Part shown: piece after piece, positions 244 through 58,584 of the stretch | How positions within the stretch are numbered: the first letter of the stretch is position 1 | Layout: every line of letters starts with the position of its first letter | Source: Planctomycetaceae bacterium | GTDB taxonomy: Bacteria; Planctomycetota; Planctomycetia; Pirellulales; UBA1268 | Assembly (NCBI GenBank): GCA_021300535.1 | Contig: JAJTED010000015.1 | Location: 1-58,584 of the forward strand | Direction: 5' to 3' | DNA length: 58,584 nucleotides | Notes under the pieces: generated by a model | The model's input: the letters and a program-made list of their open reading frames with translations, nothing else | Database searches by the model: none | Told to the model about the DNA's origin: nothing | Program-made: the position numbers and the translations under genes

Positions 244-1224
244 ATGTCCCCGCGCCCCGCCTTCGTTCGTGCCCTCGTCGCGACGCTCTTCGCCGCCACC
301 TGGGCCGATGCCGCCCGCGGACAGGTCGCCGCGCCCCAGCAGCAGGTCGCCCAGCCGCAGCAGGTCGCCCAGCCGCAGCCTCCCGCCCCGCGGCAGCCTC
401 CCGCCCCGCGGCAGCCTCCCGCCCCGCGGCAGCCTCCCGCCCTCTCGCCTCAGGAGCAGGCCGCCCTCGATCAGCTGCTCGCCGCCTGGGAGGCCCGCAG
501 CGCCGCCGTGAAGACGTGGTCATGCACGTTCCACAAATGGGAGTACAACGCCTGGAGCCCGGCCGACGCGCAGGGGCAGCGATTGGCGTTCGCCGAGAGC
601 ACAGGCGAGCTCAAGTACGCCGCCCCCGACAAGGGGCTGTTCCGGATCAAGGAGTCGAAGCAGTGGAACCCGCAGACGCGGCGGTACGAGGTGCGCGGTG
701 GTGAGTCGGGCGAGCACTGGGTGTGCAACGGCGAGAGCATCTACGAGTTTCGCCACACCGACCGGCAGCTGCGGGAGACGAAGCTGCCGCCCGAGATGCG
801 CGGCAAGGCAATCAGCGACGGGCCGCTCCCCTTCGTGTTTGGCGCCAAGGCCGAGACGCTCAAGAAGCGGTATTGGATGCGGATCATCACGCCGCCCAAC
901 GCGACGGACCAGATCTGGCTGGAGGCCTTGCCGCGGTTCCAGGCCGACGCGGCCAACTTCTCCAAGGTCGAGCTGATCCTCCGCTCCCGCGACCTGATGC
1001 CGTTCGCGATCCAGATCTTCAAGCCGGGCGGTCGCGATCAGGACGTCTACCAGTTCGACCCCAACACGAACCTCATCGACAAGGGTCTCGACCTGTTCCG
1101 TGACTTCGCCAAGCCGACAACGCCCTTCGGCTACAAGTACATCCTGGAAGAGGTGCCGGCCGGCCCGCAGGCCGCGCCGCCCGGGGGCATGCGACCGTCG
1201 GTGCCGGCGAACCTGCCGCGCTAG
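244..1224 (+). CDS. TIGR03009-type planctomycete exported protein
   Basis: This 326-aa protein has an N-terminal signal sequence (about residues 1-27, ending near ADAARG). A low-complexity Gln/Pro/Val/Arg stretch follows (residues ~30-70), built from an 18-bp unit encoding QPPAPR repeated about three and a half times at 376-438. The globular part (from ~75) starts LDQLLAAWEARSAAVKTWS and has alternating strands with FHKWEYN. I recognise this as the planctomycete-specific TIGR03009 domain, whose function is unknown; the fold resembles LolA-like outer-membrane lipoprotein carriers, but that is inference. The ATG is the first in frame. Dispersed repeat family A begins directly after its TAG stop. 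Confidence 0.8.
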   Translation: MSPRPAFVRALVATLFAATWADAARGQVAAPQQQVAQPQQVAQPQPPAPRQPPAPRQPPAPRQPPALSPQEQAALDQLLAAWEARSAAVKTWSCTFHKWEYNAWSPADAQGQRLAFAESTGELKYAAPDKGLFRIKESKQWNPQTRRYEVRGGESGEHWVCNGESIYEFRHTDRQLRETKLPPEMRGKAISDGPLPFVFGAKAETLKKRYWMRIITPPNATDQIWLEALPRFQADAANFSKVELILRSRDLMPFAIQIFKPGGRDQDVYQFDPNTNLIDKGLDLFRDFAKPTTPFGYKYILEEVPAGPQAAPPGGMRPSVPANLPR

Positions 1225-1347
1225 CAGACTGTGGCACAAGTCTGCCCGAGCATCTGCCCGAGCAGGATGCGATGGCCGTCGACCAAGTGGAAAAAGACCA
1301 TGGAGGGCTTTTTCCACGGACATGGAGCGTGCCGTGACGCAGCCCCG
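1225..1347 (+). repeat. Dispersed hairpin repeat, family A, copy 1
   Basis: The element starts directly after the preceding stop codon with CAGACTGTGG, an ACAAGTCTG..CCGAGC block (partly duplicated here) and AGGATGCGATGG. It then carries a perfect 10-bp stem: GTGGAAAAAG at 1287-1296 pairs with CTTTTTCCAC at 1308-1317 around an 11-nt loop. Related copies lie at 10660 and 28347. This copy lacks the first hairpin present in the other two. The region 1225-1422 holds no credible gene. Confidence 0.75.
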
Positions 1348-5710: not shown

Positions 5711-5737
5711 CCGAGAAGACCCGGGTGGTAACCCGGG
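5711..5737 (-). terminator. Terminator-like hairpin (family D) for the minus-strand GT cluster
   Basis: Read on the minus strand, CCCGGGT (5737-5731) pairs with ACCCGGG (5726-5720) around a TACC loop and is followed by TCTTCTC. It lies downstream of the GT2 stop at 5914 and belongs to a repeated sequence also seen at 50983 and 51162. Confidence 0.5.
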
Positions 5738-5844
5738 GACACCGGGCATGAAAACCACTGCGTCGTCCATGCTGGAAGGCTGCATGTGATTCCGCGGTTC
5801 AAGCTCGCCTCGCATGGCGACCGGGACGGCATGCCACCCGGAGT

Positions 5845-5870
5845 CCCCGGGCTTCCGCCCGGGGCTTTTT
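5845..5870 (+). terminator. Rho-independent terminator (family D) after glutathione peroxidase
   Basis: CCCCGGGC (5845-5852) and GCCCGGGG (5857-5864) form a perfect 8-bp stem with a TTCC loop, followed by CTTTTT. It separates the convergent peroxidase and GT2 genes. The same hairpin, preceded by ACCCGGAGTC, recurs elsewhere in the window. Confidence 0.8.
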
Positions 5871-5913
5871 GTGCTGTTCACACGGCGTTGATCAGCGCGG
5901 GCCTTCGCGCCGC

Positions 5914-10659: not shown

Positions 10660-10772
10660 CAGACTGTGGATCAAGGCTGCCCGAGCGGGATGCGATGGCC
10701 ATCGCCCCAGGAGACGCTCGGCGTTTCCTGCGGTCGATGAAGTGGAAAAAGGTCAGGGACGACTTTTTCCAA
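10660..10772 (+). repeat. Dispersed hairpin repeat, family A, copy 2 (two hairpins)
   Basis: CAGACTGTGGATCAAGGCTG opens the element. Hairpin 1 pairs CAGGAGAC (10708-10715) with GTTTCCTG (10723-10730), including one G-T pair, around a 7-nt loop. Hairpin 2 pairs GTGGAAAAAG (10742-10751) with CTTTTTCCAA (10763-10772), 9 of 10 pairs, with an 11-nt loop as in the other copies. It ends 42 nt before the gyrA start. The rest of the 323-bp gap (10492-10659) holds only the candidate promoter. Confidence 0.75.
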
Positions 10773-10814
10773 TGACAGCATGTCCGGCGGGTTTTTGGGC
10801 TCGGAGACCGTTCC

Positions 10815-17963: not shown

Positions 17964-18095
17964 GGGGCTGCCCATGCCCCGGGAGCCGGCGTAGGCGGCC
18001 AGCGGAGCCATGGATGGCGGAGCGCAGACGCCTCCGAGAGAGTGAAGGCCCGGAGGGCCGCAGCGAACGTCCGGCGACGGGGCGTGGGCAGCCCC
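17964..18095 (+). repeat. Dispersed repeat, family B, copy 1 (132 bp, terminal inverted repeats)
   Basis: GGGGCTGCCCATGCCCC (17964-17980) and GGGGCGTGGGCAGCCCC (18079-18095) are inverted copies matching at 16 of 17 positions. The interior carries GAGCCGGCGTAGG, CAGACGCCTCCGAGAGAG and GCGAACGTCCGG blocks shared with the copy at 39815. It ends 67 nt before tgt. No ORF in it looks real. Confidence 0.75.
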
Positions 18096-27341: not shown

Positions 27342-27551
27342 GGCCTCGGCATCCTGCCTCGCCTCGCTTGGCCGGCCTCCGCCGGCTCATGAGGGGCCGC
27401 CATCCGGGCGGCCGGTCGTGCGACGGGGCTTGTCGTTTGGCGTGGTGGCCTCGGCATCCTGCCTCGCCTCGCTTGGCCGGCCTCCGCCGGCTCATGAGGG
27501 TCCGCCATCCGGGCGGCCGGTCGTGCGACGGGGCTTGTCGTTTGGCGTGGT
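27342..27551 (+). repeat. 105-bp tandem duplication
   Basis: A 105-bp unit (27342-27446) is repeated at 27447-27551 with one visible difference (GAGGGGCC versus GAGGGTCC), and a third copy begins but breaks off after GGCCTCG. The unit contains GCCGGC and GGCCGCC inverted repeats. It occupies much of the 416-bp gap after the VWA gene. 105 is divisible by 3, so spurious frames stay open through it. Confidence 0.9.
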
Positions 27552-27749: not shown

Positions 27750-28361
27750 TCACAGCACGTGATTGTCGCTCGCGAACACATCGCGGCTCTCGTAGGCGTG
27801 GAAGAACCGCGAGATCTTCAGGGCGAGCTGCTGGAGGAACAGCGCCCGGAACTGGGCCTCGCTGCGGTCGGTCGTCGGGATCGCGCTGTCGCCCGGGAAC
27901 GTGTAGTCGTCGATCCGCTTCTTGTCCACGTCGAACACCCGCACGTGGACCGTGGCCCGGCCGCGGTACAGCGTCGCCCCTTCGTGGAGACGAAAGCCCT
28001 CGAGGTCGATGCCCACGACGTAGTTCGCGTCGAGTGCCTTGCCGAGCGTCGGGTAGTCGACCCAGGCGTTCTCGTCGATCCAGCGGGCCACCTCATGCTG
28101 CCCGATCACCTTCACCTTGCGGACGGCCTGCTGGAGCTGGCCGCCGACGAGCGACGCCAATTCACGGGACGAGCCGGCGTCGCTGAACTCGAGCTCCACG
28201 ATCGGCTTGCAGACGACGGCCACGTGCTTGCCCTTGAGGCCGGCGAACTCGGCCGGCACGTCGGCGGGCTGGAGCAGGTAGGCCGCTGTGATCAGCGTCG
28301 AGCAGCCCGAGAGCAGGGGCAGGGCCAGGGCCAGGGCGATGCCGAGCAGACGGTGGAACAA
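27750..28361 (-). CDS. Lipoprotein of unknown function
   Basis: About 203 aa if it starts at TTG 28361. The N-terminus is a lipoprotein signal: FHRLLGIALALALPLLSGCS, with lipobox LSGC and Cys near residue 20. The mature part reads KHVAVVCKPIVELEFSDA, then SRELASLVGGQLQQAVRKV, NYVVGIDLEGFRLHEGATLY, and RATVHVRVFDVDKKRIDDY. This suggests a CsgG/LpoB-like alpha/beta domain of outer-membrane lipoproteins, but I cannot name a family. No Shine-Dalgarno sequence precedes the TTG, and the first ~15 bases lie inside repeat A copy 3, so the start is uncertain. A family D terminator follows the gene. Confidence 0.65.
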   Translation of the reverse strand: MFHRLLGIALALALPLLSGCSTLITAAYLLQPADVPAEFAGLKGKHVAVVCKPIVELEFSDAGSSRELASLVGGQLQQAVRKVKVIGQHEVARWIDENAWVDYPTLGKALDANYVVGIDLEGFRLHEGATLYRGRATVHVRVFDVDKKRIDDYTFPGDSAIPTTDRSEAQFRALFLQQLALKISRFFHAYESRDVFASDNHVL

Positions 28362-28489
28362 GTCTGTCCGAGCAGGATGTGAGGGATGTCGACCGGGGAA
28401 ACTCACGGCGTTTCCACCGGGCGACCAAGTGGACAAAGGCCGAGGAAGGCTTTGTCCACGGGCAGCGAGCGCGGTGCGACGGAGCATGG
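28347..28489 (+). repeat. Dispersed hairpin repeat, family A, copy 3 (two hairpins, compensatory change)
   Basis: The element opens CAGACGGTGGAACAAGTCTG. Hairpin 1: CCGG+GGAAAC (28393-28402) pairs with GTTTCC (28410-28415) and CCGG (28417-28420) around a 7-nt loop. Hairpin 2: GTGGACAAAG (28429-28438) pairs perfectly with CTTTGTCCAC (28450-28459) around 11 nt. Relative to copies 1 and 2, one A-T pair has become C-G on both sides. It overlaps the lipoprotein start and ends ~155 nt before tilS. Confidence 0.75.
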
Positions 28490-50900: not shown

Positions 50901-50937
50901 GGCCAGGAAGCGAAACTCCGGAGCCACGATGACGCGG

Positions 50938-51063
50938 GCCGTCGTGCGGCGTGGCCGGCGGGGTGGTTTTCGTACCTCGTGTCCCCGGGTTTCCACCCGG
51001 GGCTTCTTGAAATGCGCGTCGCTCCCCGCAAAAAGCCCCCGGCGGGAGCCGGGGGACTCCGGG
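50938..51063. repeat. Bidirectional terminator cassette (family D), tandem copy 1
   Basis: This ~126-bp unit contains two opposite-facing terminators. On the plus strand CCCCGGGT/ACCCGGGG (50983-50990/50995-51002) is followed by CTTCTT. On the minus strand CCCCCGGC/GCCGGGGG (51055-51048/51043-51036) is followed by C and TTTTT. It lies between the convergent prc and SDR genes. Confidence 0.85.
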
Positions 51064-51116
51064 TAGCATGACTTCCCGCGTGCCATCCGGTGCGGGGGCG
51101 AGCCTAGAAATCGCCT

Positions 51117-51242
51117 GCCGTCGTGCGGCATGGCCGGTGGGGTGGTTTTCGTACCCCGTGTCCCCGGGTTTCCACCCGGGGCTTCTTGAAATGCGCGTCG
51201 TTCCCCCCAAAAAGCCCCCGGCGGGAGCCGGGGGACTCCGGG
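51117..51242. repeat. Bidirectional terminator cassette (family D), tandem copy 2
   Basis: This is nearly identical to the copy 179 bp to the left. Plus-strand stem CCCCGGGT/ACCCGGGG is at 51162-51169/51174-51181. Minus-strand stem CCCCCGGC/GCCGGGGG is at 51234-51227/51222-51215, followed by TTTTT at 51213-51209. This copy would stop transcripts from the SDR gene (stop at 51285). Confidence 0.85.
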
Positions 51243-58345: not shown

Positions 58346-58425
58346 GGGGCTGTCCACGCCCCGTCGCCGGACGTTCGCTGCGCCCAGAGGCTTTCGCGCC
58401 GTCGCCGCCATCCCGGCGTCGGCTC
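58346..58425 (-). repeat. Dispersed repeat, family B, copy 3 (partial, inverted)
   Basis: GGGGCTGTCCACGCCCC (58346-58362) followed by GTCGCCGGACGTTCGCTGCG is the reverse complement of the right end of copy 1 (18060-18095). The left half is only weakly recognisable. It lies 78 nt upstream of waaA. Confidence 0.65.
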
Positions 58426-58458: not shown

Positions 58459-58566
58459 AAGGCACATTTCCCGGGTCTGAAAACGATCCCGCCGTCCATG
58501 CCGAGAGGCGGCATCTGCTTCCCTGGTGCGAACCCGTATCGCATGGCAGGCGGGAAGGTGTGCGAC

Positions 58567-58584
58567 CCGGAGTCCCCCGGCTTC
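58567..58584 (+). repeat. Family D terminator repeat, cut by the window edge
   Basis: ACCCGGAGTCCCCCGGCTTC at the very end matches the left arm of the terminator repeat at 5839-5852. The right arm and T-run lie outside the window. Confidence 0.5.

What the first reader, a model, noticed from the sequence alone, without database searches (positions are those of the whole stretch)
1225..1347. Structured dispersed repeat (family A) with covarying hairpin, three copies
Intergenic elements at 1225, 10660 and 28347 share a CAGAC-GTGG-ACAAG-CTG-CCGAGC-GGATG head and a terminal hairpin with a 10-bp stem and an invariant 11-nt loop. GTGGAAAAAG/CTTTTTCCAC in copy 1 becomes GTGGACAAAG/CTTTGTCCAC in copy 3: one A-T pair changed to C-G on both strands, while the loops are almost unrelated. 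Copies 2 and 3 add a second hairpin with a 7-nt loop that copy 1 lacks cleanly. All three lie on the plus strand upstream of a plus-strand start (Minf_1886-type gene, gyrA, tilS). Selection on an RNA or DNA structure is the simplest reading; a non-autonomous mobile element of the REP/MITE kind is the alternative.
Basis: seen in the sequence. Interest (0 to 1): 0.75.

Follow-up and report, generated by a model that had tools for sequence, protein, structure and literature searches.

The report
Mini-transposon family in planctomycetes
The repeated hairpin sequence is a small, gene-less jumping DNA element that probably borrows another element's enzyme and is often found exactly on the stop signals of genes, where its landing duplicates and so preserves the signal.

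Summary
The three repeats are real and belong to a family with at least 50 copies in this genome, found in 64 of 72 genomes of its bacterial family and 0 of 324 others searched in the order. It is a miniature inverted-repeat transposable element (MITE): 119-nt core, 18-nt imperfect terminal repeats, 4-bp target duplication (consensus CTAG). A copy inside an rve-type transposase gene has six gap-free empty counterparts. Full-length DUF772/DDE insertion sequences (best NCBIfam model IS1182, below cut-off) have matching ends. The hairpins covary strongly, but G·T and A·C mismatches are equal, 77 and 79, which speaks for upkeep as DNA rather than one-strand RNA. In this genus 40 of 84 copies outside genes sit exactly on a stop codon recreated by the duplication (CTAG controls 12 of 60); elsewhere 20 of 58 against 15 of 76, p=0.07. 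Window copy 3 is in frame inside a lipoprotein gene, not intergenic. New MITE family of a known kind.

The parts
1221..1224 (+). left target duplication CTAG of copy 1; TAG is the stop codon of ORF 244-1224
1225..1322 (+). copy 1, deletion form (98 nt, hairpin H2 lost); right duplication not recognisable
1287..1317 (+). copy 1 hairpin H3: GTGGAAAAAG - 11 nt - CTTTTTCCAC; its 3' arm lies in the right inverted repeat
10660..10778 (+). copy 2, full length (119 nt), flanks CGCC/CATG (no duplication left), upstream of gyrA
10702..10737 (+). copy 2 hairpin H2 (7-nt loop)
   Evidence: consensus coordinates
10742..10772 (+). copy 2 hairpin H3 (9 pairs, terminal mismatch)
28343..28346 (+). left target duplication CGAG of copy 3
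28347..28465 (+). copy 3, full length (119 nt)
28347..28364 (+). copy 3 left terminal inverted repeat (18 nt)
28389..28424 (+). copy 3 hairpin H2 (7-nt loop)
28429..28459 (+). copy 3 hairpin H3: GTGGACAAAG - 11 nt - CTTTGTCCAC
28448..28465 (-). copy 3 right terminal inverted repeat (18 nt)
28466..28469 (+). right target duplication CGAG of copy 3
27753..28487 (-). gene with a lipoprotein-type signal (by eye) that holds copy 3 in frame (41 extra codons after codon 7); no Pfam match; the counterpart in L177 lacks the insert

Best explanation
Family A is a MITE. The 119-nt element carries no gene. A transposase of an IS1182/IS5-like insertion sequence (DUF772 + DDE) most likely binds its 18-nt terminal repeats (CAGACTGTGGAACAAGTC / CTGTCCGTGGACAAAGCC), moves it, and pastes it into a 4-bp site with consensus CTAG (YTAG and CNAG also seen), duplicating the site. 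Shown: terminal repeats, 4-bp duplications, a precise empty site, copy numbers that scatter between genomes, and the same ends with CTAG-like flanks on full-length insertion sequences of the same bacterial family. Inferred: that this transposase acts on it in trans. CTAG is strongly avoided in the window's DNA, and part of what remains is TAG stop codons (12 of 83 control sites). Insertion there duplicates the stop codon, so the gene keeps its stop and the element becomes its 3' flank. Inside a gene the net gain is usually 123 nt (41 codons) and the consensus core has no stop in any frame, so the frame can stay open. The inner hairpins partly echo the terminal-repeat motif GTGGA and are kept as palindromes by paired changes, probably at the DNA level (palindrome correction during replication, or a need of transposition); which of these is not shown.
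For: Duplications: identical flanking tetramers in 31 of 112 near-full copies against 16.0±2.9 shuffled. Without three loci of another genus and extra orthologues: 27 of 104 against 13.2±2.8; other genera 21 of 40 against 9.1±1.9; a further set 9 of 24 against 3.0±1.4. Empty sites: six homologues, in five genomes, of the rve gene hit in L107 align through the join without a gap; they read CTTG, CTGG, TTGG or CTGA where L107 has CTAG. The counterpart of the lipoprotein gene in L177 lacks the 41 codons. Partner: DUF772 elements L185 and L186 have CTAG-flanked ends CAGCCTGTGGAAAAAGT / CAGGCCGTGGACAAAGT and CAGACCGTGGCCAAAGT / CTGGCCGTGGCCCAAGT; about 15 further elements show one such end. Best NCBIfam model IS1182, 193 bits. 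Range: 58 of 72 genomes of the family, 0 of 324 others of the order (two candidates scored per genome); 64 of 72 by covariance model. Stop codons: 46 stop, 46 intergenic, 14 coding of 106 copies; 83 control CTAG sites 12, 48, 23; p=0.0003 outside genes, 0.0008 deduplicated. Frame: 11 of 14 coding copies open; consensus core free of stops in six frames, 0.7% and 0.5% of shuffles.
Against: No DUF772 transposase was found in the own assembly (86% complete). In the genus the Pfam search finds it in 2 of 22 genomes and the protein search adds fragments or weak matches in G006, G017 and G020, so the partner is missing or broken where copies are many. The gene in L186 has an in-frame stop. The IS1182 model score (193) is below its cut-off of 270. 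By eye only the ~18-nt ends are shared with the insertion sequence, so this is not a simple deletion form. 81 of 112 copies do not have identical tetramers. Of 16 sites sent I aligned 5; L107 was clean, the others were gapped or inconclusive at the DNA level. Stop-codon excess outside the genus is not significant: 12 of 35 against 12 of 60, p=0.15; 8 of 23 against 3 of 16, p=0.47; pooled p=0.07. Gene calls are home-made. The six-frame test was chosen after looking, and 82 of the 112 copies have a length gain divisible by three anyway, so open frames are partly automatic.
Confidence: 0.88

Rival explanations
1. A conserved structured RNA (leader, small RNA or 3'-end element) that spread as such, with the hairpins selected as RNA.
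For: Strong covariation: 18 of 37 pairs with double changes, 212 such cells against 74.7±7.0 shuffled and at most 69 when slid; helix H2 has 11 of 14 pairs covarying. The H2 loop CCTCGGC changes about as rarely as the stems. Among copies on a stop codon the right, strong-hairpin end faces the gene more often: R 39, L 15, p=0.0015, six two-sided cases left out.
Against: G·T and A·C mismatches are equal (77 and 79; first set 83 and 64, p=0.14), whereas one-strand RNA should favour G·T. No Rfam match in the window at gathering scores. Of 22 gyrA loci one has it. In the consensus no T run follows the hairpins on either strand, so they are not intrinsic terminators. Target duplications show DNA insertion.
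Confidence: 0.07
2. A MITE that has secondarily become useful: placed after a stop codon, its strong hairpin protects or processes the 3' end of the message, so copies in that orientation are kept.
For: Orientation bias at stop codons in the genus 27 to 11 (p=0.014) and the same direction in two other sets (7 to 2, 5 to 2); pooled 39 to 15.
Against: The bias could equally come from an asymmetric target preference of the transposase. Copies decay: 216 stem cells were broken by single changes against 73 compensated. No expression data.
Confidence: 0.15
3. A REP/BIME element moved by a RAYT (Y1) transposase.
For: Short palindromes, many copies, tandem and alternating arrays in some genomes. The own genome has one weak Y1_Tnp match.
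Against: Terminal inverted repeats and 4-bp duplications, which that kind lacks (recalled); Y1_Tnp in 9 of 22 genomes and not found in copy-rich G001, G004, G015, G021.
Confidence: 0.03

Closest known systems
MITEs tied to ISMac2 (IS1182) in Methanosarcina acetivorans (160 bp, 14 copies, IR 26, DR 4; and 169 bp, 7 copies, IR 25, DR 0; PMC3852290, table seen in one passage)
   Same: small, gene-less, inverted repeats, IS1182-family partner, 4-bp duplication in one of the two
   Different: an archaeon; sequences not compared here; nothing on stop codons or covarying hairpins in the passage seen
QMITE elements of Coxiella burnetii (PMC5896051, passages only)
   Same: MITEs that overlap stop codons of some genes or sit in frame in genes
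   Different: sequences not compared; no CTAG duplication mentioned in the passages seen
GTAG/CGTC-tagged REPs (PMC3733652, passages only)
   Same: short palindromes near genes whose ends often supply a TAG stop codon; also reported from Planctomycetes
   Different: 20-40 bp, tagged by GTAG or CGTC; RAYT transposases; terminal repeats with target duplications are not part of the description seen
RPE palindromic elements of Rickettsia (named in a passage of PMC3733652)
   Same: in-frame insertion in genes
   Different: sequence and mechanism not compared here

Membership tests
MITE | short, multicopy, no coding capacity | tested here: met
   119-nt core, at least 50 copies in the genome
MITE | terminal inverted repeats | tested here: met
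   18-nt imperfect repeats
MITE | target site duplication | tested here: met
   4 bp, three copy sets
MITE | precise insertion shown by empty sites | tested here: met
   six gap-free homologues of the L107 host gene; L177 at the protein level; four other sites tried were gapped or inconclusive as DNA
MITE | ends shared with an autonomous element | tested here: met
   L185 (open gene) and L186 (gene with a stop) with both ends; about 15 with one end
MITE | moved in trans by that transposase | not testable with these tools
   needs an assay
IS1182 family (partner transposase) | DUF772 plus DDE domains | tested here: met
IS1182 family (partner transposase) | NCBIfam NF033551 over its cut-off | tested here: not met
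   193 and 182 of 270 bits, though the best model for both proteins; hence called IS1182-like only
REP/RAYT | associated Y1 transposase | tested here: not met
   9 of 22 genomes, not tracking copies; loci around the Y1 genes were not read
structured RNA family | covariation | tested here: met
structured RNA family | G-U favoured over A-C on one strand | tested here: not met
   77 against 79
structured RNA family | known Rfam family | tested here: not met
   window, gathering scores

The most novel reading that the evidence does not exclude
A mini-transposon shaped to spare genes: it targets a tetranucleotide (CTAG) that is strongly avoided in this DNA but occurs at stop codons, rebuilds the stop by its own duplication, and inside genes adds 41 codons free of stops in all frames, while its inner palindromes are actively kept paired as DNA, by palindrome correction or because a folded single strand takes part in its movement.
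Probability: 0.3. Interest if true: 0.65.

Novelty: new member of a known kind. Interest (0 to 1): 0.45.

Why it matters
It explains a high-copy repeat across a family of planctomycetes, names its likely partner insertion sequence, and offers many natural insertions for asking how a mobile element spreads in a compact genome without breaking genes. It also gives a clean case in which covariation, often taken as a sign of RNA function, goes with no wobble bias and seems to arise at the DNA level.

Tried and rejected
IS701-type partner (PF13546): in 2 of 22 genomes; no pair of matching ends (the one end-like match, in L181, belongs to the neighbouring DUF772 element). RAYT partner. Riboregulator of gyrA. 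Rfam. RNAalifold on A1 without a given structure found only 5 pairs; I then counted a structure that I named myself, so it leans on my reading of the alignment, and A1 is a selection: 34 of 55 non-redundant copies of the first set, 38 of 41 of the second, and two window copies. Similarity of H2 arms to the terminal repeats is suggestive only (2.6% and 5.1% of shuffles for the 5' arm, 21% and 25% for the 3' arm; H3 5' arm 1.2% against the right repeat, 24% against the left). A first, cruder stop-codon test gave 43 of 109 copies against 14 of 121 CTAG sites and was replaced. Literature: ten searches of the held library listed no paper that I recognised as describing this element; passages were read in five papers, none in full.

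Full report
Observation. The three repeats are present. Copy 2 (10660-10778) and copy 3 (28347-28465) are full 119-nt cores; copy 1 (1225-1322) is a 98-nt deletion form without hairpin H2. The named A-T to C-G change in the last hairpin is real. The window has no Rfam match at gathering scores. A DNA search finds at least 47 copies in this 4.0-Mb assembly (39 of 99 candidates scored) and a covariance model at least 50 (50 candidates scored).

Anatomy. The consensus is CTAG, left inverted repeat CAGACTGTGGAACAAGTC, a linker that is itself a hairpin in many copies of other genera (CGCCGC-AGGAT-GCGGCG), hairpin H2 with a 7-nt loop CCTCGGC, hairpin H3 whose 3' arm lies in the right inverted repeat (read inward CTGTCCGTGGACAAAGCC), and CTAG. 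Most copies add exactly 123 nt (119 plus a 4-bp duplication): 79 of 112.

Mobility. In 112 near-full copies (of 158 distinct hits) the tetramers on both sides agree far more often than when dealt out anew: 31 identical against 16.0±2.9. Without three loci of another genus and extra orthologues it is 27 of 104 against 13.2±2.8, and in other genera 21 of 40 against 9.1±1.9; a last set gives 9 of 24 against 3.0±1.4. One copy (L107, G004) lies in a gene with rve domains; six homologous stretches in five genomes run through the join with no gap. Four other sites tried were gapped or inconclusive as DNA. Window copy 3 sits in frame between MLRRTAL and GIALALALPLLSGC of a lipoprotein-type gene; its DNA alignment to the counterpart in G005 (L177) ends 5 nt past the join, but the translated counterpart clearly has no insert.

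Partner. PF05598 (DUF772) transposases occur in 2 of 22 genomes of the genus; a protein search finds relatives in 20 of 72 genomes of the family, many broken or at contig ends. The 1.5-kb elements L185 and L186 have two CTAG-flanked ends that match the MITE ends, and about 15 further elements show one such end with CTAG, TTAG, CTAA, CTGG or similar flanks. Pfam gives DUF772 and DDE_Tnp_1; NCBIfam's best model is IS1182, below its cut-off. The own assembly (86% complete) shows none. IS701-type and Y1-type transposases do not fit.

Range. 18 of 22 genomes of the genus match by DNA. 58 of 396 genomes of the order match, all in the own family (58 of 72), none of 324 outside; in that search two candidates per genome were scored and some matches are partial. 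The covariance model finds 64 of 72, the weakest at E=7.6e-4. Matches per genome run from 0 to at least 50. The named sources are Planctomycetaceae or Planctomycetota MAGs by their titles.

Structure. On 74 distinct copies from nine genera (A1, a selection), the named four-hairpin structure has 88.3% paired cells, 212 cells changed on both sides against 74.7±7.0 in shuffles and at most 69 when slid, and 11 of 14 H2 pairs covary; pair 53/73 shows all four Watson-Crick types. H1 hardly covaries and is probably just the inverted repeat. G·T and A·C mismatches are equal (77, 79), so one-strand RNA selection is not seen. In the first set broken single changes outnumber compensated ones (216 against 73). 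I therefore place the upkeep of the palindromes at the DNA level; the mechanism is open.

Where it lands. CTAG occurs 6 times in the window against 40±6 expected. With home-made gene calls (codon scores trained on 20 window genes), 46 of 106 copies have the duplication exactly on a stop codon, 46 are intergenic and 14 in coding sequence; 83 control CTAG sites give 12, 48 and 23. Outside genes this is p=0.0003, deduplicated 40 of 84, p=0.0008. Other genera: 12 of 35 against the same control, p=0.15; 8 of 23 against 3 of 16, p=0.47; pooled 20 of 58 against 15 of 76, p=0.07. The right end faces the gene more often, 39 to 15 with six two-sided cases left out (p=0.0015). Of 14 coding copies 11 keep an open frame; the 'coding' call of window copy 2, one of the three broken ones, is doubtful. 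The consensus core has no stop codon in six frames in both subfamilies; 0.7% and 0.5% of shuffles do as well (the test was chosen after looking), while single copies average 1.3 stops.

Judgement. It is a MITE, most likely of an IS1182-like insertion sequence. Precedents exist for each part: an IS1182-linked MITE with a 4-bp duplication (PMC3852290, passage), repeats supplying stop codons (PMC3733652 and PMC5896051, passages) and in-frame insertion (the same passages). The combination, with DNA-level covariation, is of moderate interest.

Noticed in passing
L025, L033 (both sides read), L041, L035, L032, L042 (one side read): A second repeat with ends like CAATCCCGTTCGGCACGA is nested at the same point in the loop of hairpin H3 of family A, apparently duplicating CCATGGA; its interior differs between copies.
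   Followed up: partly
L149-L155 (genome G021): The right 98 nt of family A alternates with a ~90-nt repeat (CCGGCTCGGGGGCGGCAAAAGTCGCG...), like a composite repeat.
   Followed up: partly
L075 (G005:C11), L031, L038, L006: Tandem arrays of family A; in L006 two full copies share one tetramer between them, as if one had inserted in the other's duplication.
   Followed up: no
18056-18095 and 58346-58385: 40-nt inverted pair, 95% complementary, of another repeat that by eye also appears in L068 and L042.
   Followed up: no
5714-5871, 50921-51242, 58471-58584: A further dispersed repeat family with a CCCGGAGTCCCCGGG...GCTTTTTG end.
   Followed up: no
27342-27551: 105-nt tandem duplication, 99% identical.
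   Followed up: no
28343-28487 (minus strand): In the lipoprotein-type gene the element offers an in-frame TTG just before the signal peptide, which could serve as a new start; not tested.
   Followed up: no
L142 (G006) and L248 (G036): Copies in two different genera share at least 10 nt of flank on each side (CGTAGTAGTA left), perhaps a shared site, a transferred stretch or a binning error.
   Followed up: no
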